Assembly: GCF_022869805.1 (NCBI RefSeq)
Contig: NZ_CP094974.1
Coordinates: 2,046,001 to 2,110,000, forward strand
Direction of reading: 5' to 3'
Length of the DNA: 64,000 bases
From: Halosolutus halophilus
GTDB lineage: Archaea; Halobacteriota; Halobacteria; Halobacteriales; Natrialbaceae
In this document: piece by piece, positions 26,101 to 49,889 of the stretch
How the letters are laid out: the number at the start of each line of letters is the position of its first letter
Numbering within the stretch: position 1 is the first letter of the stretch
Translations under genes and position numbers: made by a program
The notes under the pieces: generated by a model
What the model was told of the DNA's origin: nothing
Database searches by the model: none
Seen by the model: only the letters and a program-made list of their open reading frames with translations

Positions 26101-28644
26101 TGAAAAGTCGCGGTTGACCTCCTTCATGTCGCGGTGGGAGTCCGCGAACGAGAGGAGCTTGGCCGCTCTGTGCCCCTCTTCGTCGGCGACTCGCCGGAGG
26201 AGGTATTGGCTGGTCGTCACCGCGAGGTTCCCCGGCCCACGGACGAGCTCGTCGTACCGGCGGTCAGTGTCGTAGTTCTGCCCCTGGTGCGTGCAGGGCG
26301 CGACGCTTGAGAACGAACTCGCCGCTCGTACGCTCCCGTCCGGCTGGATGGTCTGGTACGCCTGGAACGGCGTTTCTCGCGTCCTGACGGCGCCGTCACA
26401 GTCACACACCGGATCGCCGACGGTACTCGTCCCGCAGGACTCGCAGTACGAGTCGGCGAGCACTTCGAACAGCCCCGCCCGCGCGAAGGTGTACGATCCG
26501 CAGGGGCAGGTGTCGGGCGGATCGCCGAAGTACTCCTGGTCGCAAGAGTCCTTCCGGCACACCCAGGGGACTAGTCGCGTCTGCGTCAGTGATCGGCCGC
26601 AGTCGCAGGTTACCGGAAGGTCCGCTTCGTGCGATCGCCCGCAGCCGGGGCAGTCGACGGGACCGTCGCCTGTGACCGGCCGCTGGTCCCCGCCGCAGGT
26701 GGGACAGCCGGGATCGTAGCCGACGCTCGCCTCGCAGTCGGGGTTCGGACACCGGTACTGGTCCGGTCCGACGTGGACGAGATCGGTCGCGCACTCGGGA
26801 CAGCCCCCCCTCGTCGACCGCGTCGTCCGTTCCCCGCAGGACTCGCACTCGAGCGTCGGCTGGAAGGTAATCCGAAGTGAGCGTACCTCCTCGTCGCGGG
26901 CCGCCAGACAGTGCTGGCAGTGGTGTTCCTCGTCGGTACGGCGTTCACCCTCCTCGCTCGGGATATAGGGGTCCAGCTGCTCGCATGACGGACAAAACCA
27001 CGCGACTAGCGCCTCGTCGTCGCAGCGGCTACAGTACGTGCTGCGTGTGACGAAGCCGTGGCCACAGGCCCTACACGTCTCCTGTGGCGAAGCGTACACC
27101 GCCTCACAGGCGGTACAGGCGTAGAAGCCGTCGATCGGCCACGAGAAGAGGTGCGTTCGGTTCTCGAGGAGGCCGGAGAACGTCCCGAGGATGGTGAAAT
27201 TCTCCAGCACCCGTTCGGCCTCGGTCTCCGTCAGGTCGAACTCACTTGCGATCCACTCAAGGAATGCCTCATAGGTCCGGGGTTCCGAGGAGAGTTCGTC
27301 GTGTAGTACTCGGAAGGCGGCGACAACGGGCGACGCGTCCGCGCCCTCGTTCGCGATGGCGTCGAAAAGGTCGTCGCCCAGGAGTTCGAGCAACCGGTCG
27401 TTGTCGTACGCCGACGCGTCAACGTTGAAATCGATATCGGCCAGTAACGGCGGAGTTCGCTTCCCGCGTGCGAACGAGAGTAGTTCCTTCTCCTCGAGCG
27501 TCGACTCCGTGAACGCGGGCGGCATGCTCGTCTCCGACGGCGCGTCGAGGGAACGAGATCGCTCGTCGACATGTTCAACCTCCGTCGCGCCGCTGATCTG
27601 CTGGAACAGTTCAACGTCGTTCTCCACGGTCGCACTGCTGGCAATCACCTGGAGGTCGTCGCACCCGCGGTCCTCGCGGAGGGCGCGCATACGCTTGGTC
27701 AGCGTGGCAGTATAGCTCCCGAACAACCCGTCATAGGTATGAACCTCGTCGAACACGAGGAACTCGGGATCGTACACGAAGGTCTCGTGCTCGTCGGGCG
27801 CGTTGACGTTCACGAGTTTCATGTTGATCGTGTCCGGGTTCGTCAACAGGATGTCGACGCCCTCAGTGAGGATCGCGTGCTTGGTAAGCCGGATAAAATC
27901 GAGCGGCACGTCCTCGGTGCACTGGCGCTTCTCCGGGCGGAGCTCGTAAGACTGCCCGCTGTTGTGGACGTGGACGCCCTGCCGGCAGTTGCGGCACTTC
28001 TCGAGATCCTCATTCGCACCGGGGCATTCGGTGTATTTGAACGACGACTCGAGGTACCCCTGGGCGTTTGCGCTCATATTCGTCGGCGTGTCGCCGTCGT
28101 AGATCCCGATCGTGATCTGCTGGTTCGTCGGCCACTGCTCGTTGATCCGGTAGAGGTACTGGACCAGCCGCTTGAACTGGTCCTGTGCCAGGGCCTTCGT
28201 GGGGTAGATGAGCGTCGCGGTTGTGCCGTCCCCGTCGCCGCGGCGCTTCTTCTCTAAGATGCGGTCGAGAATCGGGATCAGCCATGCTTCGGTTTTCCCC
28301 CGACCCGTGGCGGCCGTGACGACGGTGTCGCGGCCGTCGCGGATCGCCTCGATGCTCCGCTCTTGGAAGTCGTACAGGCGCCGGAACCCCAGGTCGTCGA
28401 AGGTCTTCCTGATGAGCGGGTTCAGCCCCACGCTTGAGGCGAACGACCGCCAGGACTCGTCGCTCCAGTTGGGCACGTCCAGCGCCTGGAGGTACGGCCC
28501 GCGGACGTTGATGAGGTCGTCGGGGTCGTCGAGGAGACGCTCTTGGCGGTTCGCGATGCTTCGCGCGGCCGGCCCCGTCCGGCCGACGAAGTGGTTCTGG
28601 TAAGCGCGAACGGCCTCGGTGGCGCGCTGAGTAGGATTCTCCAT
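23140..28644 (-). CDS. DpdJ-like giant DExH helicase with zinc knuckles and DUF1998 (copy A)
   Basis: This is an 1834-aa protein starting at ATG 28644, three bases after the coiled-coil gene. Walker A is TAATGRGKTEAW (111-118) and the DEVH box is FDEVHTYDGLFGSY (~300). Motif III is ASSATVEN. A long zinc-knuckle insertion spans ~510-750 (CTACEAVYA, CRACGHGF, CSRCDDEA, CPNPDCEAS, CPTCGGDQ, CESCGTST). Lobe 2 has MELGVDIGDLDALLLYGTPP and QRIGRAGRDSGSS (~1150). A charged coiled coil lies around 1400-1470 and DUF1998 with CDCDDGCPLCLYQYGC ends the protein. Both helicases keep every ATPase motif, so neither is a decoy. Two such genes in tandem are unusual: bacterial dpd clusters carry one dpdJ. Likely partners are the ATPase and coiled-coil proteins just upstream. 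Confidence 0.85.
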   Translation of the reverse strand: MENPTQRATEAVRAYQNHFVGRTGPAARSIANRQERLLDDPDDLINVRGPYLQALDVPNWSDESWRSFASSVGLNPLIRKTFDDLGFRRLYDFQERSIEAIRDGRDTVVTAATGRGKTEAWLIPILDRILEKKRRGDGDGTTATLIYPTKALAQDQFKRLVQYLYRINEQWPTNQQITIGIYDGDTPTNMSANAQGYLESSFKYTECPGANEDLEKCRNCRQGVHVHNSGQSYELRPEKRQCTEDVPLDFIRLTKHAILTEGVDILLTNPDTINMKLVNVNAPDEHETFVYDPEFLVFDEVHTYDGLFGSYTATLTKRMRALREDRGCDDLQVIASSATVENDVELFQQISGATEVEHVDERSRSLDAPSETSMPPAFTESTLEEKELLSFARGKRTPPLLADIDFNVDASAYDNDRLLELLGDDLFDAIANEGADASPVVAAFRVLHDELSSEPRTYEAFLEWIASEFDLTETEAERVLENFTILGTFSGLLENRTHLFSWPIDGFYACTACEAVYASPQETCRACGHGFVTRSTYCSRCDDEALVAWFCPSCEQLDPYIPSEEGERRTDEEHHCQHCLAARDEEVRSLRITFQPTLECESCGERTTRSTRGGCPECATDLVHVGPDQYRCPNPDCEASVGYDPGCPTCGGDQRPVTGDGPVDCPGCGRSHEADLPVTCDCGRSLTQTRLVPWVCRKDSCDQEYFGDPPDTCPCGSYTFARAGLFEVLADSYCESCGTSTVGDPVCDCDGAVRTRETPFQAYQTIQPDGSVRAASSFSSVAPCTHQGQNYDTDRRYDELVRGPGNLAVTTSQYLLRRVADEEGHRAAKLLSFADSHRDMKEVNRDFSEPEAATLMDQTLVEATRRREPWIDAETVLDDAMELIEDLGDELAPPQDVRGVTFDLTEELVDIPRRHMDTEEAVRDRLRRRLYPHSYSGRYGEFGGALADAGLVDVRLDPDVRAELSAEERGIVQELVKNGSGSSIENIDPPSPSTDVRGVVNDLDNQGVLEADDDYVEFDPSALEVTLTGDDDDLYYRPSIGSYDQTIDAQFGGRSGDAVPSNTSIEALADPEHPRFTARAYRTTYSEPRMLVGQVYHGMTEKKERRELEYLFREGNQPHFLSSGPTMELGVDIGDLDALLLYGTPPNMNAYLQRIGRAGRDSGSSLVHSVSQRNPIDYYYYEQPADLMAADPQPVPLKEYNEEVLRVSLTWGVLDYVAANFVVPWEVERRGRYASVSGGDEFEHRHPSSGDDVAKLTHVMSARTKELGLQSRNSKLAALGTVVHDYDREIREHLERLLDHRYCVECNRKYDRDTDRETCVDDDCSGDLRDALSEFEHLIDEAVERFGERFIDHYGEYRRELEDELEDVQRRWRKLKRDRRRASSGEEARRISEERATLADRKEALRRRLDQIERMSYLDFLRESRQSRYAFNMRSVTNNVGVGLIDAGEDGYRTRSIGEDDGRSMRMAISELHPGAAYLDGGDAYVVSQLSTDEFASSELRERVRRSQASGLAEEYVCPACGEGHEAPGDTCSCGADTDLRRRRLVVPESVRAHRSDLLMSADGDPARTVYREPSNEIQNTYAERKTEVLEFEPVKRFDLTGEDGEPLGTVEYGSIDVLLHTDGFRAKYKSGEMDGETTPFMLCGDDDCPGTVYRNEDDQLHCSANADHGPAHDTGYELARLGYEYQTDGIRVDLDDTAEAHTLVHGFRVALQYLGGVSIRELSEVVHGDGVVDLFDAQEGGAGVTGLLFESGEGRRNFEQAISLLREHFRCDCDDGCPLCLYQYGCDTHNRGRSFDREGLFERLNRASTAVLATDGGTGIERTEPNEDTKPDS
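25105..25176 (-). repeat. 72-base near-identical block shared with 19556-19627
   Basis: Counterpart in helicase copy A of the block at 19556-19627; three mismatches in 72 bases. It encodes the motif VI region and the residues SLVHSVSQRNPIDYYY. Confidence 0.7.
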
Positions 28645-29392: not shown

Positions 29393-32300
29393 TCACTCAC
29401 CTCCGATGACGTCGGCGATCTCATCGCGTGTCGCGACGAGGGTGCGGAACTCCTCGGAGTCCCTAACTGCGCTCTCCAGTTCGTTGTCTATCTCGGGAAC
29501 TTCGACGACCTGCGCGGTCTCGATCATCTCGCCGATGGCCTCGTAGATCTCCCACTCCGCGGCCGTCTCCCGACTCTCCTCGAACTCGTGCATCAGTCCG
29601 ACGAGTTCGGGTCCGCTTGCGGACTCGACCTCTCGGAACCGCTCGATGTCCTTCGCGAACGCCCCGAGCTGGAACCGGTCCTCGTTTTCGAGGCGTTGTC
29701 GCCGATTTTCCCACTTGTTACGCATGTTCACGTCGAGGTCGCCGACGATCTCCAGCAATTCATCGTATAGCTCCTGGAGTTCGTGGAGCGAGTGGCTCTC
29801 GTCGTACCAAGCGTCGATCTCCTCTACGGTCTCGGTGATGTACTCGACATCGTTCGGACCGAGCCCGTTGAGTTCCTGTGCGTAGACCTTCACGTACTCG
29901 AGGACGGGCGCCATTTTAATCGTCGCGTTCGACCGCGTCGTTCCGACCTTGTATGCGTCCGGGAGGTCGTCGGTGTCGATGAACATTGCTTCCTCGAGGT
30001 ATGTCTCGAGGTCGTTGGCGACCGCCCCGTAGGCCTCGTTCAGCCGCTCGGCGTCGACGAAGTTCTCCTTGATCTTGAAGAATCCCTCCGCGAGATCGGT
30101 CGGGACGCTGCTCTGGGTGCTCAGGTCGGTGAGCGCTTCGAAGAAGGGGTGAGTCCTGTCGAACCGCTTCTCGACCGGGTGGGGATACTCGTCCGGGTGT
30201 TCGTATGACTCGAACACCTGGTCGCGCGTCAGCCCGGTCTCCCCCCGCGCTGCGTTGACGAGGAGGTACTGGGCCACGACGACGAACTCCTCAATCGTCC
30301 AGCCCTCGAAGCAGTCCTCGATGCGCTCGCGCATCGTCCGCTTGAACTCGGCGACTGAATCGTCGGCCCAGTTGCGCAGTAATCCGTAGTTGAGGTCGTA
30401 GCGGTCCTCGTAGGGGAGTTCGTCGTCGGCGCTGATTCCGTACCAGAACAGCGGCTCGTAGATCCGATCGTACTCAGAACCGAACGGGAGCTCGATGCTG
30501 ATACCCGTCCGCTCGTCGACCCCCTGTAGCGATACGGGGACCTGGGCTCCACGCGTGTAGTAGATGCCAGCCGTTCCACGCGTCGAGGAGTTAGGATTGG
30601 CGAGGCGGCTCGGCTCGTACCACTCTTCGAGCAACTCCGCCGTCCCGTCTCGTAGCGTCGCCGAACTGGCGTACTCCTCGCCGTTGGACACCCACTGCTG
30701 GTAGTCGAAGCGGTACTCGTCGACGGTCTCGCCGTCGTAGTCAGTCTCGACCGGGTAGGTTCGAATCCCCGCGATCCGGACCTCTTTTTCGTCCTCGAGG
30801 TTCTCGTACTCCGCGGCGATGCTTATCGAGGGTGGGTCGTCGGCGGTAATCTTGAACGTCCCGTCCTCGTCCGTGGTTCCCAATACTTGTCCGTCGCGTT
30901 TGACCGTGACCTCAGCGGTCGGCTCCCCGTTAACCCGCGCGGTGAGTTGGACCGTCTCGCCCTCGCTCGGGGTGGACGGTGTCGGGATTAGCGCGAGCGA
31001 GTCCGTCCCGACTGCGAGTTCGAGCGTGCCGGTGCAGTCGGCCTTCTCGCCGATGATCTCCACGTCTCCTTCCTCGTCAGGGAGCGTTACCGTCAGCCGC
31101 CCGTCATCATCGGTGTGACCAACGACCGATCCGTCGAGAGTCACCTCGACATCGGACTCAGGTCGGTCGTTCAGCAGCGCCTCGACGGTGATCGTCCTAC
31201 CGGGCTCGATCTGTCCGTCGACCTGCCGCAGTCGGAGGTCGGACGGCGCACCAATGTCCGCGTCGAAGACCACCTCGAACTCTGTGGTTCTGACCGTGCG
31301 CTCGGGCACCGGGACGTCGAAAAGTTCGAACACGCTGCGGGGCACCCGCATGTTCCCCTCGGCGGTCGGGATGCCGTACCACTTCACGATCGACTGGACT
31401 TCGGCGGGATAGTCCAGCGATACAGGCGTCGGGAACTGCTTGACGTACGGGTTCCCGTCGATCGCCTCGAAGGGCGGTTTCGTCGACGTCAAGCACTCTC
31501 GGACGATCCGCATGAGGAGCAGTCGCGGCGTCCGTCGCTCGTTTCCGTCCTGAACGAGGTTCTCGTACGCACGTTTGATGAACTCCGCGTTGAACGGATA
31601 GAGACCGTCGAAGTCCTCCTCCGGGATGTCCATGTCGGCCGACACCGCCGAGTCCTCGCGAATGACCGAGAGGTACTGCTTTGTCAGTTCGACGGTGACG
31701 TCGTCCGTGAGGAAGTACGCCTGACCGGTGTCGTCGGTCGTGCTGAGGTACCCCTCGGCCCGGTCTTTCATGTACGTCTGGGCGTCCTCGTTCGTCCCCA
31801 ATGCTGTGTCGACGTTGTCCTTCTCCCAACCGGTCGTCCAGCCGAGCACCACGTCGTAGTGTCCGCTGTCGAGTTGGAAGATGTGGTCCAGCAGTTGTTC
31901 TTTGAGCACGCTGAACGTCGTGAGATCCTCACAGATCAAGACCGGACGAAGTCCCTGCTCGACGTACTCCTCGGAGATTTCCTTGAGCCGCTGCTGGAAG
32001 TCGCCAACGCCGAGTTTGCTGGACAGTTCCTGATCGATGAAACTCTGGAGCGCCGGGAAGATGGTATCGCCACCTTCCGCCTTTCCGAACGCCGCCACCG
32101 AGAGGTCGCGGTAGTCCTCCTCCGTGATGAGTTCCGGGATGTCCTCCTCGTCGTCGCTCAGGACTGCCTCCTGGTACTCGCGGACGTTCTCCTCGAGGAT
32201 GCCCCGGAGATCGGTGCTCCGGGGACGGTCCTCGACGAGCGCCTGGATCTCCTCCTCTGTGAACGACTCGAGCATCGGGTTGTACGCTTCGAGGTTCGCA

Positions 32301-32758
32301 AGCATGGCGTTCGCGACCTTTTCGGGGTCGAGCCCGCCGACATCGCGGACGTTGACGTCCATCTCGAGCGGTTCTGTGAGGATCTCGACGATGTCCTTAA
32401 TGCGGGTCTCGCTCCGGGAGACGTGCAGGGCGACGTGCATATCGTCCATTCCGGAGTCTGCCTCGTGCCCGATTTGGTATTCGAGCCACTGGCACAGTTG
32501 GCTCTTCCCGCTCCCGGTCTCCCCGCGCAGGATGAAGATCCGATTGTCGTCTTCGGTCTCCGACTTCAGGATCGCGTCGCGGAACTCCTCTTGCGTAACA
32601 AACTCATCGTTCGTTGGGTGGGGGAACAGGTAGTCCGCTCTGAGTTTGTCGATGTCGATGTGGGTGCGCTCGAACTCCTCTTTGGACTTCTGGTGCGCCT
32701 CCGCAGTCAGGTACTGTCGAACGGTGTCGTCGGACCAGTCGATGGGGTACTCGCTCAT
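29393..32758 (-). CDS. DpdH-like P-loop ATPase with internal Ig-like repeats
   Basis: This is a 1121-aa protein starting at ATG 32758, overlapping the upstream stop (ATGA). The ATPase domain has Walker A GETGSGKSQ (79-87) and a Walker-B-like PVLICEDLTTF (~300), suggesting an AAA/STAND-type switch. Residues ~515-660 contain two tandem beta-sandwich repeats. The first starts GRTITVEALLNDRPESDVEV, the second GETVQLTARVNGEPTAEVTV, each ending in a DEDG/DDDG-type turn, like bacterial Ig-like domains normally found outside cells. The C-terminal ~450 residues are helical. No signal peptide is present, so it acts in the cytoplasm. Its place after the winged-helix gene and before the coiled-coil gene corresponds to dpdH. 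Confidence 0.75.
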   Translation of the reverse strand: MSEYPIDWSDDTVRQYLTAEAHQKSKEEFERTHIDIDKLRADYLFPHPTNDEFVTQEEFRDAILKSETEDDNRIFILRGETGSGKSQLCQWLEYQIGHEADSGMDDMHVALHVSRSETRIKDIVEILTEPLEMDVNVRDVGGLDPEKVANAMLANLEAYNPMLESFTEEEIQALVEDRPRSTDLRGILEENVREYQEAVLSDDEEDIPELITEEDYRDLSVAAFGKAEGGDTIFPALQSFIDQELSSKLGVGDFQQRLKEISEEYVEQGLRPVLICEDLTTFSVLKEQLLDHIFQLDSGHYDVVLGWTTGWEKDNVDTALGTNEDAQTYMKDRAEGYLSTTDDTGQAYFLTDDVTVELTKQYLSVIREDSAVSADMDIPEEDFDGLYPFNAEFIKRAYENLVQDGNERRTPRLLLMRIVRECLTSTKPPFEAIDGNPYVKQFPTPVSLDYPAEVQSIVKWYGIPTAEGNMRVPRSVFELFDVPVPERTVRTTEFEVVFDADIGAPSDLRLRQVDGQIEPGRTITVEALLNDRPESDVEVTLDGSVVGHTDDDGRLTVTLPDEEGDVEIIGEKADCTGTLELAVGTDSLALIPTPSTPSEGETVQLTARVNGEPTAEVTVKRDGQVLGTTDEDGTFKITADDPPSISIAAEYENLEDEKEVRIAGIRTYPVETDYDGETVDEYRFDYQQWVSNGEEYASSATLRDGTAELLEEWYEPSRLANPNSSTRGTAGIYYTRGAQVPVSLQGVDERTGISIELPFGSEYDRIYEPLFWYGISADDELPYEDRYDLNYGLLRNWADDSVAEFKRTMRERIEDCFEGWTIEEFVVVAQYLLVNAARGETGLTRDQVFESYEHPDEYPHPVEKRFDRTHPFFEALTDLSTQSSVPTDLAEGFFKIKENFVDAERLNEAYGAVANDLETYLEEAMFIDTDDLPDAYKVGTTRSNATIKMAPVLEYVKVYAQELNGLGPNDVEYITETVEEIDAWYDESHSLHELQELYDELLEIVGDLDVNMRNKWENRRQRLENEDRFQLGAFAKDIERFREVESASGPELVGLMHEFEESRETAAEWEIYEAIGEMIETAQVVEVPEIDNELESAVRDSEEFRTLVATRDEIADVIGGE

Positions 32759-33645
32759 GCGTCCACCTCCGTGAATCGGTCGAAGAGGTAGCGTTTGCTC
32801 GCGGGCAGTTCCTTCGGCCAACCGTGCAGTTCAAACTTCGTCACGCTCGGTTCCTCGTTTCGAGAGTGCGTCGAGGGTAGTACGACCTCGTTCTTCGCGT
32901 CCGACATTCCGCGTACGTCGACGTAGTCATCGTCGATCAGGGTCTGTAGCGTGTCGGTGACGCCTTGGTGAAGCCGCGGCGTCCCGGGGCGGGTCGTGAG
33001 GACGGTGAGGAACTCGTCCTCGATCCACCCGACTGCGGCACCGAAGTCGGTCGAGTTCTCCTCGTCCCGGAAGGTCTCGAGGAGTTCGTACAGCAGCGTC
33101 GGCCGCGGTGACAGCACCAACTCCCGAGAGTCGATGTACGACAATACGCCGATGCCCTCGAGGAGGTGGTACCAGCCGTTGATCTTCGTCTTGTTCCAAT
33201 TGATGTACTCCACCTCGTTATTGAGTTCGGTCACGAGGCGCTCGCGTTTGACCGTCTTCGGGGCGAACTCGAACGCAACGCGCTGGGCCTCGACGATGTG
33301 GTCCTGAGGATGTTCCTGACGGTTCAAGTGGTAGAGCAACCGGAGCTCGAACGAGAGGTCGGGATAGACGTCTTCGTTGAGCAGTGAGACCACGCGGTCC
33401 TCCGGACGCTCGAGGAGATCGATTGCGCGGAGGAACTTGAGACACTCCCCGAGGTGGGCGTCGTCCTTCGAGCCGTGGTCGTCGCTCGGTACCATCGTGT
33501 CCTTGAGCGTGGACACGTTGATCGGCCCGCCCCCAGCGGCCTTGAGGTTGCGGTAGATGAGCCGCAACTCGGGGACGCGAACCGTCGAGTAGTTCACGAG
33601 GTCTTTCTGCGGTTTGTTGTCGTTCGTCTCGTAGGTAGTTGTCAT
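32755..33645 (-). CDS. Winged-helix protein of the Dpd-like operon (DpdG position)
   Basis: This is a 296-aa protein. ATG 33645 overlaps the upstream stop (ATGA) and begins MTTTYETNDNKPQKDLVNYS. Residues ~30-90 (STLKDTMVPSDD, then LGECLKFLRAIDLLERPEDR) look like a helix-turn-helix followed by a wing. A second such unit is likely at ~150-210. The fold suggests a DNA-recognition or scaffold subunit rather than an enzyme. The gene overlaps both neighbours, so it is translated with them. Bacterial dpdG, also ~300 aa, sits directly before dpdH, as here. Identification rests on size, fold and order. Confidence 0.65.
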   Translation of the reverse strand: MTTTYETNDNKPQKDLVNYSTVRVPELRLIYRNLKAAGGGPINVSTLKDTMVPSDDHGSKDDAHLGECLKFLRAIDLLERPEDRVVSLLNEDVYPDLSFELRLLYHLNRQEHPQDHIVEAQRVAFEFAPKTVKRERLVTELNNEVEYINWNKTKINGWYHLLEGIGVLSYIDSRELVLSPRPTLLYELLETFRDEENSTDFGAAVGWIEDEFLTVLTTRPGTPRLHQGVTDTLQTLIDDDYVDVRGMSDAKNEVVLPSTHSRNEEPSVTKFELHGWPKELPASKRYLFDRFTEVDA

Positions 33646-34505
33646 CGGTAGTTGGGGTCTCGCTGTCGGTAGTTTTCGAGCGTCGATGCGTCGTAGTCGC
33701 AGACCCGAAGCACCTCCAGGATGTGGTTGGCGACACGCTGGGTGTCTCCCTTCTCCATCCACGAACGCAGGGCCTCGCGGATGTGGTCAGAGTAGTCCTC
33801 TAACACGTTTTCAAGATCGTGCTCGATGAAGTAGCGGGCCGAGTCCCACACCGGGCTGTCGGTCGGTGCTCGAGTGTAGTCGAACACCGCTTCGATGCCG
33901 TCCGCCGGAGCGCCTGCCTCAGCGTGGATCGCCGACGCGGCGTGGAAGAACACGTTCCGCGTGTCGACCACGGGAATCCGAGATCGACCATCGAGGGCGT
34001 CCTGTACGAACGAGTTCGCCAGCGAGGCGTAATCGCGGACCGCGATAGCTGGGAAATCGTCCACGACAGAGCGCCCGGGCTTTTTCGTGTAGGTCGGTGT
34101 CCGCGGCGCCGTTGTGTCCGTAACCAGGACGTATTGTCCGTCCTCGTCGAGCGAACGCTCTAGGAGCCGACGGACGAGGTCCTCCTCACCGTGTTCAAGA
34201 ATACCGTCCTGCGTAACCACGTGCACGAGGGGGAACTCAAGCTCTTCGGGGTCTGCGTCCTCGCTCGAGACGTGCTCGTAGTCTATCGGGCTGTACTCGT
34301 TGTCCCACAGGTCCGTGTGAACGACTCGGTTCAGTCCGAGCGACTGAAACAGTGGGAGCGATCGGAGTTGCGCTCGCGCTTGTTTCCCTCGCTTCTGTAA
34401 CTGCGAGTCCCTGACGACGATCGTCGGTGTTTTCGTGTGTGCTATATCGACAAGTTGTACCGATCCCGAGTCGTCGAACCGTTCGTACCAGTGTCCTGTG
34501 GTCAT
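33642..34505 (-). CDS. Unknown protein, first gene of the minus-strand Dpd-like operon
   Basis: This is a 287-aa acidic protein starting at ATG 34505. I do not recognise its family. Visible features are a beta-alpha core (QLVDIAHTKTPTIVVRDSQL, VVHTDLWDNEYSPIDYEHV, FPLVHVVTQDGIL, YVLVTDTTAPRTPTYTKKPG) that could be a Rossmann-like or nuclease-like sheet, and a helical C-terminus. The stop overlaps the start of the winged-helix gene. An A+T-rich ATACATA-type element ~22 bases before the ATG on the minus strand suggests a leaderless promoter for the whole seven-gene operon. It has no obvious counterpart among bacterial dpdA-K. Confidence 0.6.
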   Translation of the reverse strand: MTTGHWYERFDDSGSVQLVDIAHTKTPTIVVRDSQLQKRGKQARAQLRSLPLFQSLGLNRVVHTDLWDNEYSPIDYEHVSSEDADPEELEFPLVHVVTQDGILEHGEEDLVRRLLERSLDEDGQYVLVTDTTAPRTPTYTKKPGRSVVDDFPAIAVRDYASLANSFVQDALDGRSRIPVVDTRNVFFHAASAIHAEAGAPADGIEAVFDYTRAPTDSPVWDSARYFIEHDLENVLEDYSDHIREALRSWMEKGDTQRVANHILEVLRVCDYDASTLENYRQRDPNYR

Positions 34506-34856
34506 CCTATTACAGTGTCTCCACTATGTATCGTGGCAAACATGTTCTGACGTCGATACGCCGTTCGGTCGTTGATCGCGGTAACTTCGCTTCGTTTGTT
34601 CGTGTTTTCGAGGGGGTGTGTAATCCTATTAAACTTTCCGCTAATCTGATTAGTGTTTCGGAATGCCAGAATTCATCGAGTGAATTTTAGATTTATGGGA
34701 TCTAAACAGAAGTTATAGTTAAATTCTTTGTGGCCCCCTGTCGTGTTCGGCCTGACGCCTCGATTGATCGTTGCAAATCGGTTACAACGAGACCGGACCG
34801 TTCTACGATCGTGCAACACCATCGTTTTATTTGGGACGTCCAATACGATGGTACGA
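34506..34856. promoter_or_regulatory. Divergent promoter region of the two Dpd-like operons, with a palindrome
   Basis: These 351 bases separate the minus-strand operon from the CARF-HTH gene and contain no credible gene; base composition is clearly richer in A+T than the flanks. A perfect dyad CTAATC-T-GATTAG lies at 34641-34653, with related TAATC and TATTAAA sequences just before it (34621-34634). A TATA-like CGTTTTATTT at 34823-34832 is correctly placed for a leaderless transcript of the CARF-HTH gene. The dyad is a candidate operator for that regulator. Confidence 0.5.
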
Positions 34857-35507
34857 ATGACGACGTTCATTGCTACGATCGGATTCGACAGTACCCGTGT
34901 CACACGACCGGTACTCACTTACGGACTCGAAGAGGGCGACGAAATCGTTCTGGTACAACCGATGGACGACGGGGAAAACGACCGATCGAACGAGGCACGC
35001 GAGGACGTGCGCCGAATGGTTACTGAACTGCAACCGAACGTCACCGTCGATCCGGTCGCACTAGATCCGGAGGAGTTCTACGAGGGCATCCGTCGTAGCA
35101 TCGATCGTATTGAATCCGAAAGCGACGACGTCGTCATCGTTCTCGGTGGGGGCGCACGAGATATCTACCTCCCTGTCGCGTTCTCCGCCTTCCTCGCACG
35201 CGACGAGATCCACACAGTCCTCCAGTTCAGTGATATCACGGGGTCCGTCTCAGAGATACAGATCCCCAACTTCGTCGATCCTCTGAGTGACTCTGTTGTC
35301 GAGACCCTTGAGGTGATCGTCGACGTTGATGAAGGGACATCACTGACGTCCATCTCGAACACACTCGACGTCGCGAAGAGTACTGTCGCCCGTCACGTTG
35401 GCGAGCTCGAAGAACGCGGATTTGTCCATGCAGAAAAACATGGTAAGTCTAAGATGGTATATCCTACAGAAGAGGGGCGTCTCGCTATCGATATTAACAT
35501 CTTCTAA
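34857..35507 (+). CDS. CARF-HTH transcription factor (Csa3-like)
   Basis: This is a 216-aa protein starting at ATG 34857 (MTTFIATIGFDS); an ATG at 34848 would add three residues. Residues 1-125 form a CARF Rossmann fold. Its signs are FIATIGFDSTRVTRPVLTYG with GDEIVLVQP, then VVIVLGGGARDIYLPVAFSA, whose GGGAR loop sits where CARF proteins bind cyclic oligoadenylate. Residues ~140-216 are a winged helix (SLTSISNTLDVAKSTVARHV, then GELEERGFVHAEKHGKSKMVY). Csa3 proteins regulate CRISPR-Cas genes in archaea, but no cas gene or repeat array occurs in this window. It stands alone between the divergent operons, so it is best placed to control them. Confidence 0.82.
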   Translation: MTTFIATIGFDSTRVTRPVLTYGLEEGDEIVLVQPMDDGENDRSNEAREDVRRMVTELQPNVTVDPVALDPEEFYEGIRRSIDRIESESDDVVIVLGGGARDIYLPVAFSAFLARDEIHTVLQFSDITGSVSEIQIPNFVDPLSDSVVETLEVIVDVDEGTSLTSISNTLDVAKSTVARHVGELEERGFVHAEKHGKSKMVYPTEEGRLAIDINIF

Positions 35508-35960: not shown

Positions 35961-38162
35961 GTGAGGTTCTTCGTTCCTGAATGGGATGACAACGTCGACG
36001 CTCACTATGACTTCGAGCACGACGAGCACTCGGAGCTCGGAACTGAAGAGCGCGAACTGCAGTATATCTGGGACATCTTCGACTACGAGACGACCCCAAT
36101 CGACGGCGTTCTCATTTCGCGCGAGCAGGTCGAAGAAAGCGCAACGAAATTCGATCAACTCACGTCTTATGGAGTCTACGACGAACAGTCAGGACTCGAT
36201 ATCCCCGATTGGCTCCCGACGATCAGCGACTGCGGCGCCTGGGGGTACAAATCGCTCCCGTTCCCTCCCTACGACAACGACGAGATGCTGGCGTTCTATG
36301 AGGAACTCGACGTCACGGTCGGCGTGACGATCGACCATCTCGTACTTGGCTCCGGACACGATTCCAGGCTCTATCTCGATAAACGCGCATTCGCTGACTC
36401 ATCGCTTACCCCGAACGACCTTCCCGAGGAATTGACCGACGAAGTCGACGTCATGGTGGACGAGTGGCCCGCTGAATGGCCATCTTACGTCAAGGAGTAC
36501 GATTCAACGGTCTACGATGTGTCGTCGATCGAACCGTTCGATCCCGAGGACTTCGACGGTGATCCGACGAAAGTGATCGAGCGGTTCCAGGACGATCCTC
36601 GCGCCATCTACCGCGAGGACGATATGGAGTTCCGGTACGAGTTGACGCTCGACAACGCCGAGGAGATGAAGCAACTGTACGACGAGAACGGTTACTCGTT
36701 CCGGCTGATGGTTGCGATTCAGGGGTGGGATCCGATGTCCTATACGCGTGCGGCTAAGCAGGTCCTTGACCTCGGATACCAGTACGTGGGGATCGGCGGC
36801 GTCGCGGGGAGCAATGCCGCACGGATTCGAGATATCGTCACCGGCGTCGGAAACGCAGTCAAGGAACACGAGCGAAACCGGAAGACGAGGGTGGACACAC
36901 ACGTCTTCGGGTTTGCGAAGACGGACGCGTTCGATGCGATCGGCAAAACCGGGATGTCGAGTTTCGATAGTGCGAGTATGCTTCGGTCGGCCTGGACAGG
37001 CGGCGACAACTATCACCTCGGCAGCGAGCGGCGCTACGATGCACTGCGCGTCCGATTCGGATCGAACAGAGACCCGCTCGAGAAACAGATACAGACCGCT
37101 CTGCGGGGTCAAGAATTGCTGCACTCGCTTCGTGCGTTCGACGAGGGATCGTCGATTTCGGAGGCGATCCGGGAGTGGCACGCCGACGCGACGCGGGCAC
37201 TCGACGAATTGGCGCCCTACCTGAAAGAGCACAGGCATGACGACGAGTACGATCGGCGGCTCCTACGTGACGTTGAGGAGCATTTCAGGGACCACTACGA
37301 CCACGGGCGAGAACTCCGAGCGTCTTTCAGCCGGACGCTCCGGAAGCGGATTATCAAGTTGCTTCGGGATGACGATCCCGAATCGCCGATCGGTTTCGAC
37401 GAGTATCAGGAACTGATCGAGACCGTTCGAGAGGAATTCGAGGAATTCCCCAGGATGGCCGAGACGATCGAACAGCGCGAGGAGTTTTCGGGGAACGTTG
37501 CGACGTTCGATCAAATCTGGCTCCTTGTGGAAGATTATGCTCCGTGGATCGGTGATGAACGACTGCTTGACGAGTACAAACGACTTCTCCGAGAGGAGCC
37601 GTGGCGGGAGTGCGACTGTCGAATCTGCGAAGAACACGGGATCGAAGTGGCAATCTTCCGTGCGAACAACCGGAATCGGCGTCGAGGATTCCATAACACG
37701 AAACGATTCTACGACCAGTTCCGAGAGGCGCTTCCGAAGACACTCGTCACTACGCCGGCCTCAGAATCGCTTACGTCGTGGAGCACGGTAGAGGGCTACC
37801 TCCTCACGGAACGTGAGGACTTCTGGTCGGACGTCCACGATCTTCCTGTTGCAGAAATCGGTGCCATCAGTGCCGATGGGGTCCACGAGTGGTGGTCGGA
37901 ATCACCAACGTCGGTGTCGCTCGACGCGACCGAAATGACGGCATCGATCAGAGACTTCTGTACGCGGTATCAGAATCTGTTCCTGTACGATCCAGATGAG
38001 ATCGTTGATCAGGAGGTCATCGAAGCGATTGAAGCGAAGGGATGCGTCGTAGAGTCGCATCGAGATTCGTCGGAGCTTCGAGCGGCCGTTCTTGATCGAC
38101 TTGGATATGAGAGCGAGTTCCTACCCGAGTTCATGATTCAAAAAGGGCTGATGGAGTTCTAA
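35961..38162 (+). CDS. dpdA: DpdA-like DNA 7-deazaguanine (preQ0) transglycosylase
   Basis: This is a 733-aa TGT-superfamily enzyme expected to exchange guanine in DNA for preQ0. The GTG start gives MRFFVPEWDDNVDAHYDFEH, the N-terminus expected for DpdA proteins. Asp90 in SDCGAWGY occupies the place of the general-acid/base Asp of tRNA transglycosylases. VGVTIDHLVLG follows as the pocket strand. Asp336 in GMSSFDSASMLRSAW is the predicted nucleophile. A zinc site is present as C551-x-C553-xx-C556 with His578 (GFHNTKRF). Length and the C-terminal helical region differ from tRNA enzymes, and the SSFDSAS box is characteristic of the DNA branch. It is two bases from the DUF6884-like gene and heads the modification operon. 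Confidence 0.85.
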   Translation: MRFFVPEWDDNVDAHYDFEHDEHSELGTEERELQYIWDIFDYETTPIDGVLISREQVEESATKFDQLTSYGVYDEQSGLDIPDWLPTISDCGAWGYKSLPFPPYDNDEMLAFYEELDVTVGVTIDHLVLGSGHDSRLYLDKRAFADSSLTPNDLPEELTDEVDVMVDEWPAEWPSYVKEYDSTVYDVSSIEPFDPEDFDGDPTKVIERFQDDPRAIYREDDMEFRYELTLDNAEEMKQLYDENGYSFRLMVAIQGWDPMSYTRAAKQVLDLGYQYVGIGGVAGSNAARIRDIVTGVGNAVKEHERNRKTRVDTHVFGFAKTDAFDAIGKTGMSSFDSASMLRSAWTGGDNYHLGSERRYDALRVRFGSNRDPLEKQIQTALRGQELLHSLRAFDEGSSISEAIREWHADATRALDELAPYLKEHRHDDEYDRRLLRDVEEHFRDHYDHGRELRASFSRTLRKRIIKLLRDDDPESPIGFDEYQELIETVREEFEEFPRMAETIEQREEFSGNVATFDQIWLLVEDYAPWIGDERLLDEYKRLLREEPWRECDCRICEEHGIEVAIFRANNRNRRRGFHNTKRFYDQFREALPKTLVTTPASESLTSWSTVEGYLLTEREDFWSDVHDLPVAEIGAISADGVHEWWSESPTSVSLDATEMTASIRDFCTRYQNLFLYDPDEIVDQEVIEAIEAKGCVVESHRDSSELRAAVLDRLGYESEFLPEFMIQKGLMEF

Positions 38163-38164
38163 CG

Positions 38165-38866
38165 ATGAGGGTACTCATCATCGACCAATGTTCGAACAGC
38201 AAATCCTATCCAGAGAATAGCGTCGCTTTCGATGCATCTGAAATCGATGACGCCGGCCTCAACGCGCTCCGAAACCGAAAAGAGGCAGCGAGCATTCCGG
38301 CACGCAAACTCTACGCTGGCCGACAACAGCAATACGTCAATGACGCAGTCGATTCGCTCCGTGCTAACGGCCATAACGTAGATCGGTACTTCATCAGCGC
38401 GGGGTTCGGACTCGTCGCAGAGAGCGAAGAACTCCCGCCGTACAACGTTACGTTCGCGGATATGACCGCAGACGAGATTGAGTCTCGAGCCGATACTCTC
38501 GAACTCACGGAGCGGACTCGGAATGTGATTTCGTCTGAACCGTACGATATCGTCTTTTTCGCGCTCGGGAGTGATTACTACCGAGCGCTAATTCTGCCAG
38601 ACGCTCTCTCTGCAGTCCCCGAGGAGACGATCGGTGTAACGTTCAATCAAGAAGAAATCACCGATCAGTACGACAACGTCATTTCCATCCCGGCTCGGAC
38701 TGACCAAGCGAAAGAATACGGGACGATCGTCGTTGCGCTCAAGGGAATCTATCTGAAGAACTTCGCTGATAACCTCGCGCAAGGTAGTGAGCCGACGTCT
38801 CTCGAAGACGTGAGAGCAGCCTGCCTCAACGAGCCGACCTCACAGAAGGACTTAACTGAATTTTAG
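38165..38866 (+). CDS. DUF6884/YaaA-like protein in the dpdA operon
   Basis: This is a 233-aa protein starting two bases after dpdA. The hallmark elements are VLIIDQCSNSKSYP, IPARKLYAGRQQQYV and YFISAGFGLVAESEELPPYN, corresponding to the C-s-x-K, p-A-r-x-L-Y-t-G and S-A-x-x-G-L blocks of the DUF6884/YaaA-like group. YaaA-type proteins are DNA-binding and related to glycosylases. In this setting it may present DNA to the transglycosylase or convert preQ0 in DNA further, taking the place of DpdB or DpdC, neither of which is present. That role is inferred from linkage only. Confidence 0.65.
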   Translation: MRVLIIDQCSNSKSYPENSVAFDASEIDDAGLNALRNRKEAASIPARKLYAGRQQQYVNDAVDSLRANGHNVDRYFISAGFGLVAESEELPPYNVTFADMTADEIESRADTLELTERTRNVISSEPYDIVFFALGSDYYRALILPDALSAVPEETIGVTFNQEEITDQYDNVISIPARTDQAKEYGTIVVALKGIYLKNFADNLAQGSEPTSLEDVRAACLNEPTSQKDLTEF

Positions 38867-38946: not shown

Positions 38947-39981
38947 ATGCTGTATCGGCAACGGTTGCTCGATCTTCCTCACGGGGAATTACAGACGCCA
39001 GTGCTGTTCCCCGTGCGCAACCTCGGGAAGCGATCGAGTGACAATACACCAGAATACATCAGTTCCATCCCTGATCTACCCACAGCGATGATAAACGTCC
39101 GGGCGATCAGGGAACGGGACCCGATGTGGGATCGCTTGACTAATGGGGTGTCCCTTCGGGAAGAGATGGAGGTGCCGGATGATACAATCGTCTATGCGGA
39201 CAGCGGTGGGTACGATTTCAGCGAGAAAGATCCCGACACGACACCCCAAGAAACGCTAGAAACTCAACGCCTGCTCGAGGCGGATATCTTCGGTACCGTC
39301 GATATTCCGTTGTCCAGAGAGAATCGATCGGCGGAGAATCAGCGTCGGATCGATCGAAGTATCGACCTCGCATTGGAAGCAAGTACGCATCACGACGGGG
39401 ATGAACTTCTTTTGGCGAGCGTCCACGGGTACGATCCCGAGACGATCCGGAACGGGATTCGATACCTGGAACGACGTGGAGAGTTCGATGGATACGCCCT
39501 CGGAAGCCTCGTCCCCGTTCGTACAGATTACGAGAAAGTCACGAAACTCGTACTGGCAGCGCGAACGGCGACGGACAAACACCTCCACGTCTACGGACTC
39601 GGCGGCCTCGTCTACCAACCACTTTTGCTCTATCTCGGCGTCGATAGCTTCGACTCGTCAGCGTTCATTCGAAGCGCGGGAAACAGAAACTACCTGCTTC
39701 CTGGATTCGGCGGCGAAGAGTTGTGGAATATTGACGATCTCGAGTACCTCCCATGTCCGTGTCCCGTTTGCGGGTCACGGACGCTTGATGATATCCGAGA
39801 GGATCGTGACGCGTTGGTTGTACACAACCTCTGGGCGCTGACGACTGAGTTGCGCCGGTTCCGATACGTCGCTTCCGCCGGTAGGGATATCGAGGACTAC
39901 CTCGACCTACGGTTCCAGGGCAACGAAGTCACCCAGCGGGCGTATCGGATTGCTAAACAGCAGGTCCGGAGGTTAACATGA
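38947..39981 (+). CDS. Second TGT-fold transglycosylase with intact active site
   Basis: This is a 344-aa enzyme about half the size of the DpdA. It keeps all landmarks of queuine/archaeosine transglycosylases. Asp85 lies in YADSGGYDF (the DSGGF box). ADIFGTVDIPLS is the LD-x-P strand and GYALGSLVPVR resembles the GG/GS loop of the base pocket. Asp236 in VDSFDSSAFIRS is the predicted nucleophile. The zinc site is C270-P-C272-PV-C275 with His293 in VHNLWAL. It lacks the PUA domain of archaeal tRNA enzymes, so the substrate is probably DNA, but a tRNA role cannot be excluded. Its stop overlaps the next ATG. Two transglycosylases in one cluster suggest two bases, two steps or two sequence contexts. 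Confidence 0.82.
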   Translation: MLYRQRLLDLPHGELQTPVLFPVRNLGKRSSDNTPEYISSIPDLPTAMINVRAIRERDPMWDRLTNGVSLREEMEVPDDTIVYADSGGYDFSEKDPDTTPQETLETQRLLEADIFGTVDIPLSRENRSAENQRRIDRSIDLALEASTHHDGDELLLASVHGYDPETIRNGIRYLERRGEFDGYALGSLVPVRTDYEKVTKLVLAARTATDKHLHVYGLGGLVYQPLLLYLGVDSFDSSAFIRSAGNRNYLLPGFGGEELWNIDDLEYLPCPCPVCGSRTLDDIREDRDALVVHNLWALTTELRRFRYVASAGRDIEDYLDLRFQGNEVTQRAYRIAKQQVRRLT

Positions 39982-40880
39982 CCTCAGAGCGAGCAACGAT
40001 CCGTCCAGTTACTCTAGGGCGCCTTACGGAACTCACTCACCTCTGTGAGAGTGCTCCAAAATCGACATCAGACGTCGAGGAGGAGCTTGGTGTCACAACT
40101 CGCCGAGCTCGAGAAGCGATTCTTGAAGCAACCCGGATCGGGTTACTCGAAGAGCGAGAAAGGAGTGAGAATGACGACGAGGAAGTCTACCGCACGACGC
40201 CTGTTGGTGAGCAATTTCTGACGGCGATCCGCAACGAGGAGTGGGAGACGGCTGATGAGATCCTTGCCGTTCGAAGCCCGCACTACGGTGCGATGTTCGA
40301 GGCACTCGCAGAGATCGGGCCTGTCCATCCCAATGAGTTGCTCGAGTATCTGGAAGAGGAACACGAGTTTTCACCGTACACGTTCAACCAGACCGGTATC
40401 GAGGTCGTCGGGAACTGGGCGGAGCGACTCGGCGGAATTCAGCGGAATGCGTTCACTGGAGACTATTATGTCGTCGATCGCGCAGACGTTCCGATGAACT
40501 TCCAGTACGTGCTGCTGGAGGCGTACGACGAACTCGAGGAGACGGCCGGCGTTAACCTTCGTCAGCGGTATCTCTCGATCCCGCGGTTGCGCGAACGGAC
40601 CTGTGAACGACTCGGTTGTCCACGAAACGCGTTCGATCAAGCACTCTCAGCGTTGTGCAGACAGAACGTCGGCAAACTCGAACTCTCCGGGGCCCCGTTA
40701 GATACATCTGCGAAGGATTCGGCGCTGGGAATCAAAGAGATCGAACTCGCCGACGGTGACACGCTCGTATCGACTTCACAATCAACACAGCAGGTGATGG
40801 CCGGTCTCGAACAGTTCGATAAGCAGTACTACTACCTCGCGGTGTACGACCGCAACATCACGTTCACTCCAGACCCATGA
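39978..40880 (+). CDS. Multi-winged-helix protein of the modification operon
   Basis: This is a 300-aa protein overlapping both neighbours by four bases (ATGA). Residues ~15-75 are a winged helix (LTHLCESAPKSTSDVEEELG, VTTRRAREAILEATRIGLLE). A second unit at ~90-160 (VHPNELLEYLEEEHEFSPYT) and a third at ~190-235 are probable. There are no catalytic motifs. Coupled to an AAA ATPase, such a protein usually supplies DNA binding or target recognition to the motor. It is similar in size and style to the DpdG-position protein of the opposite operon but I see no close sequence match between them. Confidence 0.65.
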   Translation: MTSERATIRPVTLGRLTELTHLCESAPKSTSDVEEELGVTTRRAREAILEATRIGLLEERERSENDDEEVYRTTPVGEQFLTAIRNEEWETADEILAVRSPHYGAMFEALAEIGPVHPNELLEYLEEEHEFSPYTFNQTGIEVVGNWAERLGGIQRNAFTGDYYVVDRADVPMNFQYVLLEAYDELEETAGVNLRQRYLSIPRLRERTCERLGCPRNAFDQALSALCRQNVGKLELSGAPLDTSAKDSALGIKEIELADGDTLVSTSQSTQQVMAGLEQFDKQYYYLAVYDRNITFTPDP

Positions 40881-42028
40881 GCGAAGCCTTCGACATCAGC
40901 GACCAAGCACAGGATTACAATCGGTTCGGCCTCGACGGCAACCCGTTTCCGTACAGCCCAGTCCCGGCCGAAAACCCGGAGACTTACTGTGGTCAGGAAC
41001 ACGCGACGACGACGATCAGTTCGACCGTCTCGAAGACGCTCTCGACGGGAAAGTCGAAGCACCTCGTGATCACCGGGAAATACGGTAACGGGAAGTCACA
41101 CACGCTCAAATATACCCGATCGCTCCTCCGCGATCGAGACGACATCATTGTCGGCTACGTTGCGCAACCGGGAGAGGGATTCGTCGACATTTACCACGAG
41201 TTCATGTACGATCTCGGATTCGCCGAAGTACAAAATATTGCGTACGAGTTCCTCGCCTCGGTCGCCCGAGATGTCACGGAAACGAACCCTGTCAGCGGGA
41301 GCGCGATGCGATCGCTGATCGACGAGGGGGATGTGCTCCTCTCGGAGATCGTTCCGGAGGCGATCAAGCGTTTGAGCGACATAACGCGGTTCGCCGATTT
41401 TGCAAGAGCGATCATCCACATGGTATATGAAGATACGAACCTCTACGCCTGGCAGTGGCTTACGGCTGAAGGGATCCGATACGAACAGCGGAAAGAGATG
41501 GAGATCCACACCGCTCTCGACGACGACACGATGGGCGTGCGAGCGTTCACGGCGTTCAAAAACATGCTTCTCGAGTTGGGATACACCGCAGTGTTCGTCT
41601 TCATCGACGAATTCGAGAGCATCGCCCGGCTCTCGTCGAAAGACGAGCAGGCGACATTGAACAGCATCCGTCACTTGATGGACCAGAACAGCGAGGGGCT
41701 CTGTCTCCTATTCGGCTGTGCCCCGGAGGTGTGGCAGGACGTGATGAGCGAGTACCACGCGTTCAGCGAACGGATCGGTCAGGAAGTGGCACTTCGACCG
41801 CTTACGAATGAGCATCTATACGAACTTGTCGAAGAGTATCTCAATCGAGAACGTGCTACCGAAGAATCCGGAATTCATCCGTTCACTGCTGATGGTTTAG
41901 ATATGATCTTGCAGCGTTCGCAGGGTAACATCCGCCAGGTCCTCTCGGTATGTAGCCGACTTCTTGACGCGGCAGCACAAGCACAGCGGTCAGAGATAAC
42001 TGCTGAGTTCATTGAAGAATCGATCTAA
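40877..42028 (+). CDS. AAA/ORC-like ATPase of the modification operon
   Basis: This is a 383-aa protein with Walker A ITGKYGNGKSH (about 66-75) and Walker B VFVFIDEFES (about 238-247). A sensor-type stretch is LCLLFGCAPEVW, and the C-terminal lid has RQVLSVCSRLLDAA. The layout fits the ORC/Cdc6-like ATPases found in BREX-type and other defence loci. It starts inside the stop of the winged-helix gene, so the two form a pair. It could drive DNA opening for base exchange or act as a checkpoint for the restriction arm. It is not an origin-binding Orc1, because the C-terminal winged helix is missing. Confidence 0.75.
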   Translation: MSEAFDISDQAQDYNRFGLDGNPFPYSPVPAENPETYCGQEHATTTISSTVSKTLSTGKSKHLVITGKYGNGKSHTLKYTRSLLRDRDDIIVGYVAQPGEGFVDIYHEFMYDLGFAEVQNIAYEFLASVARDVTETNPVSGSAMRSLIDEGDVLLSEIVPEAIKRLSDITRFADFARAIIHMVYEDTNLYAWQWLTAEGIRYEQRKEMEIHTALDDDTMGVRAFTAFKNMLLELGYTAVFVFIDEFESIARLSSKDEQATLNSIRHLMDQNSEGLCLLFGCAPEVWQDVMSEYHAFSERIGQEVALRPLTNEHLYELVEEYLNRERATEESGIHPFTADGLDMILQRSQGNIRQVLSVCSRLLDAAAQAQRSEITAEFIEESI

Positions 42029-46497: not shown

Positions 46498-46600
46498 CAG
46501 TTCATAGATTCGTCTTTGGGCAGTAAGATATCGGTCTCAGTCCGTTTCACAAGATCTGAGTAAGTACTATTGCTTCATCTTGGGTGAAACATTCCTCAGA

Positions 46601-49744: not shown

Positions 49745-49889
49745 TCGATAGAATCGTAATGAATCATGCCGATATATTAATTTTCTCATATATGTGTGGG
49801 TTAGGCTATCGCGCAAACAACTCACTGCGTTTCGCGGAACTACTTATATAGATCAATTATTCTGATTTGGTTGTCAACCTCAAGAGGTT

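What the first reader, a model, noticed from the sequence alone, without database searches (positions are those of the whole stretch)
34506..35507. CARF-HTH (Csa3-like) factor placed between the two halves of the system
The gene sits alone in the divergent promoter region and no CRISPR array or cas gene is in the window. A CARF domain with an intact GGGAR loop suggests control by cyclic oligonucleotides. That would tie a base-modification system to second-messenger signalling, which I have not seen described for Dpd.
Basis: partly seen in the sequence, partly recalled or inferred. Interest (0 to 1): 0.8.

Follow-up and report, generated by a model that had tools for sequence, protein, structure and literature searches.

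The report
CRISPR-type sensor-switch on archaeal restriction island
A small ligand-sensing gene switch, of a family best known from CRISPR systems, sits at the head of a DNA-modification-and-restriction island in salt-loving archaea that mostly lack CRISPR, so one kind of sensor seems to control two quite different antiviral systems.

Summary
A CARF-wHTH gene (34857-35507, +) lies in a divergent promoter region; 34506-34856 is intergenic. It is a Csa3 relative by profile and predicted fold. It is no local oddity: 391 haloarchaeal genomes hold 69 homologous places in 65 genomes. Of these, 27 are divergent neighbours of the first effector gene of the Dpd-like system that a 2025 preprint names BRIGADE, and about 40 sit beside type I-D cas operons. 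The constant partner is the effector half (two helicases, PLD nuclease), not dpdA; "between the two halves" is true in 3 of 27.

A palindrome, CTGTT-N12-AACAG, lies 51-59 bp upstream of the CARF start in 22 of 27 loci (0.1 expected); weaker copies sit at the same place in 16 of 39 other, mostly type I-D, loci. Ligand-motif residues are invariant, yet Cas10 was found in 0 of the 27 genomes and Cas1 in 6. Type III cyclic oligoadenylate is therefore an unlikely ligand; c-di-AMP is possible but untested. Public annotation calls such genes "CRISPR-associated". The sign of regulation is unknown.

The parts
34857..35507 (+). CARF-wHTH (Csa3-like) regulator, 216 aa; CARF about residues 1-138, winged HTH about 139-216
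   Evidence: PF22662, TIGR01884, PDLC01852; AF2 pLDDT 89.1 and Csa3 match Z 19.0
34798..34819 (.). Putative operator, 22-bp palindrome CCGTTCTACGATCGTGCAACAC (consensus CTGTT-N12-AACAG), 59 bp upstream of ATG 34857
   Evidence: 22 of 27 island loci have it with <=1 mismatch within 100 nt of the start (0.1 expected); the window copy has 2 mismatches; PWM 19.4, the only hit >=9 in the 64-kb window
34769..34789 (.). Second palindrome CGTTG-N11-CAACG beside the operator; possible second site
   Evidence: read from sequence; equivalent place in relative G087 scores 14.3; spacing differs by 1 from the main site
34825..34832 (+). TATA-like element of the regulator gene, 5 bp after the operator
   Evidence: read from sequence; inference
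33642..34505 (-). First gene of the effector operon ('m33642'), unknown function; constant divergent partner
   Evidence: 35 of 391 genomes have it; 27 of those 35 have the CARF gene divergent to it; AF2 model poor, pLDDT 64
32755..33645 (-). Second effector-operon gene, unknown function
   Evidence: no family match; conserved in order
29393..32758 (-). DpdH-like ATPase with Ig-like repeats
   Evidence: NF041065 73.7 bits, below cut-off 450; PDLC02891
28647..29396 (-). Small effector-operon gene, weak BrxA similarity
   Evidence: E 0.002
23140..28644 (-). YprA/DruE/DpdJ-type helicase 1
   Evidence: PADLOC DruE, DpdJ, DrmA; DEAD PF00270
17648..23143 (-). YprA/DruE/DpdJ-type helicase 2, 38% identical to helicase 1
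15688..17670 (-). PLD-family nuclease
   Evidence: PF13091 29.3 bits (cut-off 27); DrmC weak
35961..38162 (+). DpdA (modification half)
   Evidence: NF041059 275.5 bits, cut-off 200
38165..38866 (+). DUF6884 / DpdC-like
38947..39981 (+). second TGT-family protein
   Evidence: PF01702
39978..40880 (+). unknown gene of the modification operon
   Evidence: conserved in order
40877..42028 (+). BrxC/BrxD-type ATPase
   Evidence: PF10923
42680..43357 (-). homologue of a gene annotated as queuosine-precursor transporter
   Evidence: 91% match; annotation of the relative

Best explanation
The gene encodes a dedicated, ligand-gated, probably autoregulated Csa3-type transcription factor for the effector (restriction) operon of a BRIGADE-like 7-deazaguanine island. 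Inferred mechanism: a CARF-wHTH dimer holds a two-fold-symmetric ligand in its CARF pocket and binds a 22-bp palindrome beside its own promoter. In the largest clade it may also bind a second site nearer the effector promoter. Ligand binding moves the wHTH domains and changes transcription of the helicase/PLD-nuclease operon, while the DNA-modification genes are left out of this control. Modification would then be steady and restriction would be switched. The same lineage, with a related operator at the same distance, sits at type I-D cas operons in other haloarchaea. Shown here: family, predicted fold, divergent linkage, conserved palindrome, motif conservation, no match for Cas10, Cas1 or Csc2 in the host. 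Inferred: DNA binding, dimer, ligand control, direction of regulation, target operon. The ligand is probably not type III cyclic oligoadenylate; c-di-AMP or another general nucleotide is the leading untested candidate.
For: Csa3 family and fold. 27 of 35 genomes with the first effector gene have the CARF gene divergent to it, 133-576 bp apart's gene models. 20 of 27 CARF loci show both helicases and PLD; 6 of 27 run off the fetched stretch; G003 is truncated. Among the 8 CARF-less loci, 0 show helicase 2 as a full gene or the PLD. Operator: 22 of 27 with <=1 mismatch against 0.1 expected; 0 of 37 cas loci at that stringency. No PWM score >=19 outside the CARF-effector intergenic regions in 1.9 Mb of fetched sequence, no hit >=9 before dpdA, none upstream of the first effector gene in the 8 CARF-less loci. 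16 of 39 other, mostly type I-D, loci have a weaker site at -45..-65 with shuffle p<0.05. Ligand-motif residues G9, D11, S12, R14, G97-G99, R101, D126 invariant in 27 of 27. DAC (c-di-AMP cyclase domain) in 27 of 27.
Against: No binding, expression or ligand data. The operator is nearer the regulator's promoter than the effector gene, so effector control is by linkage only. G252, G264 and G174 have no clear site. Eight islands of the same first-gene family lack the regulator. Phe14, needed for cA4 binding in Csa3 (PMC8844856, passages), is Arg in all 27. HFX_2341-type regulators exist separately in the host and could also act on the island.
Confidence: 0.78

Rival explanations
1. It is an ordinary Csa3 CRISPR regulator that serves a CRISPR-Cas system elsewhere in the genome and lies in the island by chance.
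For: Passes the Csa3 model; about 40 of 69 homologues lie at type I-D cas operons; NCBI names relatives 'CRISPR-associated CARF protein Csa3'.
Against: No Cas1 and no Csc2 in the host genome; 21 of 27 carrier genomes lack Cas1 and 24 of 27 lack Csc2; 27 conserved divergent pairs with the same effector gene.
Confidence: 0.05
2. It senses cyclic oligoadenylate as Csa3 of Sulfolobus does, linking the island to type III CRISPR signalling.
For: Predicted fold matches cA4-bound Csa3 6wxq, Z 18.4, rmsd 3.3, 204 aligned; motif 1 Gly-Phe/Tyr-Asp and motif 2 Gly-x-Arg conserved.
Against: Cas10 palm2 in 0 of 27 carriers and 2 of 391 of the class; Phe14 replaced by Arg in 27 of 27. A divergent cyclase missed by the model is possible.
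Confidence: 0.12
3. The CARF pocket is used only for dimerisation, and the protein is a constitutive (auto)repressor without ligand.
For: Arg98 of Csa3 contributes to the dimer interface (PMC8844856, passage), so conservation alone does not prove a ligand.
Against: Invariant Gly-rich loop and several invariant polar residues in both motifs across 27 sequences.
Confidence: 0.2
4. It controls the whole island, modification half included, as a master switch placed between the two halves.
For: In the window, G293 and G087 it lies between m33642 and dpdA.
Against: dpdA is not its direct neighbour in the other 24 of 27; no operator-like site before dpdA in the fetched loci.
Confidence: 0.15

Closest known systems
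Csa3 (Saccharolobus solfataricus Csa3a, 2wte/6wxq/6w11)
   Same: CARF + wHTH order, predicted fold (Z 17.2-19.0), motif 1 and 2 positions, palindromic site upstream of a TATA box (Csa3a site CAPPa, PMC8699464, passages)
   Different: about 20% identity; Phe14 is Arg; here not CRISPR-linked and no Cas10 match in the host; different operator
Csa3-annotated regulators of haloarchaeal type I-D CRISPR operons
   Same: same family (about 30-39% identity), same divergent placement, same recognition-helix residues, related operator at the same distance
   Different: partner operon is cas6 - large subunit - csc2 - csc1 - cas3 - cas4 - cas1 - cas2; motif 1 and residue 97 vary more
HFX_2341 of Haloferax mediterranei (PMC11434293: abstract and passages read)
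   Same: haloarchaeal Csa3a-like; overexpression represses cas genes; its authors propose cAMP or c-di-AMP as possible signal
   Different: described there as a vertically inherited global regulator; our protein scores below the HFX_2341_N cut-off (22.8 of 30), and matches over that cut-off exist separately in 27 of 27 carriers
BRIGADE systems (PMC12458937, preprint 2025; abstract and passages read)
   Same: 7-deazaguanine genes, two YprA-type helicases, PLD nuclease, halophilic archaea
   Different: the passages found name no CARF gene ('carf' occurs twice in the text held, seen in the reference list); supplements could not be read
MM_0565 of Methanosarcina mazei (PMC7465815, passages)
   Same: dimeric CARF-wHTH that binds DNA and has targets outside cas genes
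   Different: lies at a type I-B CRISPR locus

Membership tests
Csa3 (CARF-wHTH regulators) | profile match over the curated cut-off | tested here: met
   TIGR01884 86.9 bits against 60.2
Csa3 (CARF-wHTH regulators) | CARF fold followed by winged HTH like 2wte | tested here: met
   AF2 pLDDT 89.1; Z 19.0, rmsd 3.8 over 208 residues
Csa3 (CARF-wHTH regulators) | cA4 motif 1 (Gly9, Phe10, Asn/Asp11, Phe14) and motif 2 (Gly96, Arg98) | tested here: inconclusive
   Gly9, Phe/Tyr10, Asp11, Gly99, Arg101 kept in 27 of 27; position 14 is Arg, not Phe, in 27 of 27
Csa3 (CARF-wHTH regulators) | linked to a type I CRISPR-Cas locus | tested here: not met
   no Cas1 or Csc2 in the host; held for about 40 of 69 homologues
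Csa3 (CARF-wHTH regulators) | binds cyclic oligoadenylate | not testable with these tools
   Cas10 palm2 in 0 of 27 carriers argues against
BRIGADE type II | 7-deazaguanine (Dpd-like) genes | tested here: met
   DpdA NF041059 275.5 bits; second TGT; DpdC-like
BRIGADE type II | two ARMADA-like YprA helicases, 'nearly identical' | tested here: inconclusive
   two tandem DruE/DpdJ-type helicases, 38% identical; no ARMADA profile and no helicase tree were used
BRIGADE type II | PLD or PD-(D/E)xK nuclease nearby | tested here: met
   PF13091 over cut-off
BRIGADE type II | only in halophilic archaea | tested here: met
   all 18 loci returned by the genome-contig scan bear haloarchaeal names; 15 of them show the island's first effector gene
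HFX_2341 family | HFX_2341_N profile over cut-off | tested here: not met
   22.8 bits against 30
Canonical Dpd | DpdH over curated cut-off | tested here: not met
   NF041065 73.7 of 450 bits

The most novel reading that the evidence does not exclude
A CRISPR-type CARF regulator and its operator form a portable sensor-promoter module in haloarchaea, shared between type I-D CRISPR and a 7-deazaguanine restriction island, and they respond to a non-CRISPR nucleotide signal present in all haloarchaea (c-di-AMP being the obvious candidate). Two unrelated immune systems would be set by one cellular second messenger.
Probability: 0.3. Interest if true: 0.82.

Novelty: new variant of a known kind. Interest (0 to 1): 0.6.

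Why it matters
CARF proteins are usually read as listeners to type III CRISPR. Here a set of them sits in genomes with no detectable Cas10 and mostly no Cas1, at the head of a restriction operon, so a different signal or a different use of the pocket should exist. The defined palindrome and the strict divergent pairing make this directly testable. NCBI labels such genes 'CRISPR-associated', GO 'maintenance of CRISPR repeat elements', which is misleading at these loci. The pattern also suggests a rule: modification left outside this control, restriction under signal control.

Tried and rejected
Rejected: that the gene serves a nearby CRISPR locus; that CD-NTases supply the ligand (SMODS in 5 of 27 carriers); viral spread (8 stretches of viral contigs matched a pattern, none confirmed). 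Operator strings tuned to the island found 0 of 37 cas loci at <=1 mismatch; only the softer PWM showed the related site. That PWM was trained on 15 distinct island sites and their reverse complements, so its island scores are circular; the independent tests are the mismatch count against shuffles and the cas loci. The first effector gene remained unidentified: no family and a poor model (pLDDT 64), so no fold search was made with it. The sigma-70 scan is not suited to archaea and is not used. One against several origins of the island lineage is unresolved: 2 changes on the tree, bootstrap range 1-3, one clade not rejected, p-AU 0.418. The tree leaves out two fragments (G065, G382), 67 of 69 rows kept. 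Not clean in the context counts: G131 lies beside neither system; G382 is a fragment; G286 has only a cas1 label; G255's second copy lies in a stretch that showed only cas6 by label. My ORF caller missed some CARF genes, so the homologue coordinates were used instead. Slips: mis-oriented three small loci (repaired by refetching); the label dpdJ2 was overwritten by a fragment (repeated correctly); G234's two stretches overlap, so its helicase was counted twice. PF22335 found only 2 haloarchaeal Cas10, so a very divergent cyclase could be missed. Two of the 18 named loci (L172, L178) have the gene beside neither the first effector gene nor cas6, and L177 lies at cas6.

Full report
WHAT IS THERE. 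The reported stretch is 351 bp of intergenic DNA (34506-34856) plus one gene (34857-35507, +, 216 aa). The protein matches Csa3_N (52.1 bits, cut-off 27), Csa3 TIGR01884 (86.9, cut-off 60.2) and PADLOC CARF3 PDLC01852 (206.5 bits). A profile of its island relatives finds solved Csa3 structures (6w11, 2wte, 6wxq; E about 2e-5) as its best hits. The predicted model (pLDDT 89.1) aligns over 208 residues with Csa3 2wte (Z 19.0, rmsd 3.8) and over 204 with cA4-bound 6wxq (Z 18.4, rmsd 3.3).

SURROUNDINGS. Leftward lies an operon of two unknown genes, a DpdH-like ATPase, a small gene, two helicases of about 1,830 residues of the DruE/DpdJ/YprA type (38% identical to each other) and a PLD nuclease. 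Rightward lie DpdA, a DpdC/DUF6884-like protein, a second TGT, an unknown gene and a BrxC/D-type ATPase. A 2025 preprint (PMC12458937; abstract and passages read) names such haloarchaeal Dpd-like systems BRIGADE; type II has two ARMADA-like YprA helicases. The window fits type II apart from the wording 'nearly identical', which 38% identity does not meet; I made no helicase tree.

DISTRIBUTION. A protein search of 391 genomes of the class gave 69 places in 65 genomes. DpdA was found in 57 of 391. Both occur in 31 genomes (Fisher odds ratio 10.5, p 4e-13). Neighbourhood maps class 27 of 69 as divergent to the first effector gene of the island and 38 of 69 as beside type I-D cas genes. The second copy of G255 (next to cas6) and G286 (a cas1 label) raise the latter to about 40. 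G131 and the fragment G382 are elsewhere. The cas operon was typed on one representative: Csc2, Cas3' of type I-D, Cas4, Cas1d, Cas2, weak Cas6 and Csc1; its 847-aa large subunit had no match. From the island's side, 35 of 391 genomes have the first effector gene and 27 of those 35 have the CARF gene divergent to it. Of the 27, 20 show both helicases and the PLD, 6 run off the fetched stretch and 1 (G003) is truncated; of the 8 without CARF, none shows helicase 2 as a full gene or the PLD. So the regulator goes with the two-helicase-plus-PLD effector set. dpdA is its direct neighbour only in the window, G293 and G087. In 18 named loci from another collection, several of them the same strains, 15 have the first effector gene divergent, 1 has cas6, 2 have neither. 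Named carriers include Natronorubrum aibiense and Haloferax alexandrinus plasmids, Haloferax gibbonsii and Haloarcula vallismortis.

LINEAGE. On a 67-row tree (two fragments left out) the island label needs 2 changes against 21 in shuffles; three supported island clades of 6, 4 and 17 rows appear; a single origin is not rejected (p-AU 0.418).

OPERATOR. CTGTT-N12-AACAG occurs with at most one mismatch within 100 nt upstream of the CARF gene in 22 of 27 island loci against 0.1 expected from shuffles, at -51 in all 17 loci of the largest clade and at -53 to -59 in the others that have it. The window copy (34798-34819) has two mismatches and is the only PWM hit of 9 or more in the 64 kb. Many loci of the large clade have a second, weaker site near -145 to -158. 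In 1.9 Mb of fetched sequence no score of 19 or more lies outside these intergenic regions, and no hit lies before dpdA. Sixteen of 39 other loci, nearly all type I-D, have a weaker site at -45 to -65 with shuffle p below 0.05. Recognition-helix Arg179 is invariant in 27 of 27 and 39 of 39; His180 in 27 of 27 and 37 of 39. The site lies 5 bp before the TATA-like element in the window, a position compatible with activation or with blocking of TFB (my inference); the sign is open.

LIGAND. Gly9, Asp11, Ser12, Arg14, Gly97-99, Arg101 and Asp126 are invariant in 27 of 27; position 10 is Phe or Tyr. They correspond to the cA4-binding motifs of Csa3 (PMC8844856, PMC8699464, passages), but Phe14, whose loss abolished cA4 binding there, is Arg. 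Asp126 lies one position from the residue aligned with Csa3 Glu122. Cas10 palm2 is found in 0 of 27 carriers and 2 of 391 of the class; Cas1 in 6 of 27; Csc2 in 3 of 27; SMODS in 5 of 27; the DAC domain of c-di-AMP cyclases in 27 of 27. The authors of the HFX_2341 work raised c-di-AMP or cAMP for that related haloarchaeal regulator (PMC11434293, passage). DAC occurs in every carrier, so its presence is permission, not proof.

PRIOR ART. Literature searches listed no paper that by its title or abstract start places a CARF regulator in a Dpd-like or BRIGADE island, nor did the passages read. The library is incomplete; the preprint's supplements and the 2020 CARF classification were not readable (for the latter). 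The PADLOC CARF3 models show that the protein family itself was already catalogued. Novelty therefore rests on the system link, the shared operator and the mismatch with type III signalling, not on the protein family.

Noticed in passing
L184 (Haloarcula vallismortis ATCC 29715): The host of halovirus HVTV-1, whose DNA carries dPreQ1 (PMC6884629, passages), itself carries this island's first effector gene with the CARF gene and a perfect operator: a ready virus-host pair.
   Followed up: partly
CARF-less islands G030, G223, G121, G234: Here a shorter, distant helicase gene of about 900 aa lies on the other side of the first effector gene, on the opposite strand, as if another module replaced the regulator and helicase 2.
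   Followed up: partly
G224:C1 550669 and 611411: Two identical copies of the CARF gene, each in an apparently duplicated type I-D locus about 61 kb apart in one genome.
   Followed up: no
G338 and G361: The only 2 of 391 genomes with a Cas10 palm2 match also carry the CARF gene at a type I-D locus; there cyclic oligoadenylate control remains possible.
   Followed up: no
window 34857-35507, residue 12: Invariant Ser12 in the first CARF loop; PDB entry titles list an S12A mutant of ring nuclease Sis0811. Whether the residues correspond was not tested.
   Followed up: no
window 45508-49825: HNH-type protein and a large MkoA-like helicase or nuclease beyond the island: further defence genes.
   Followed up: no
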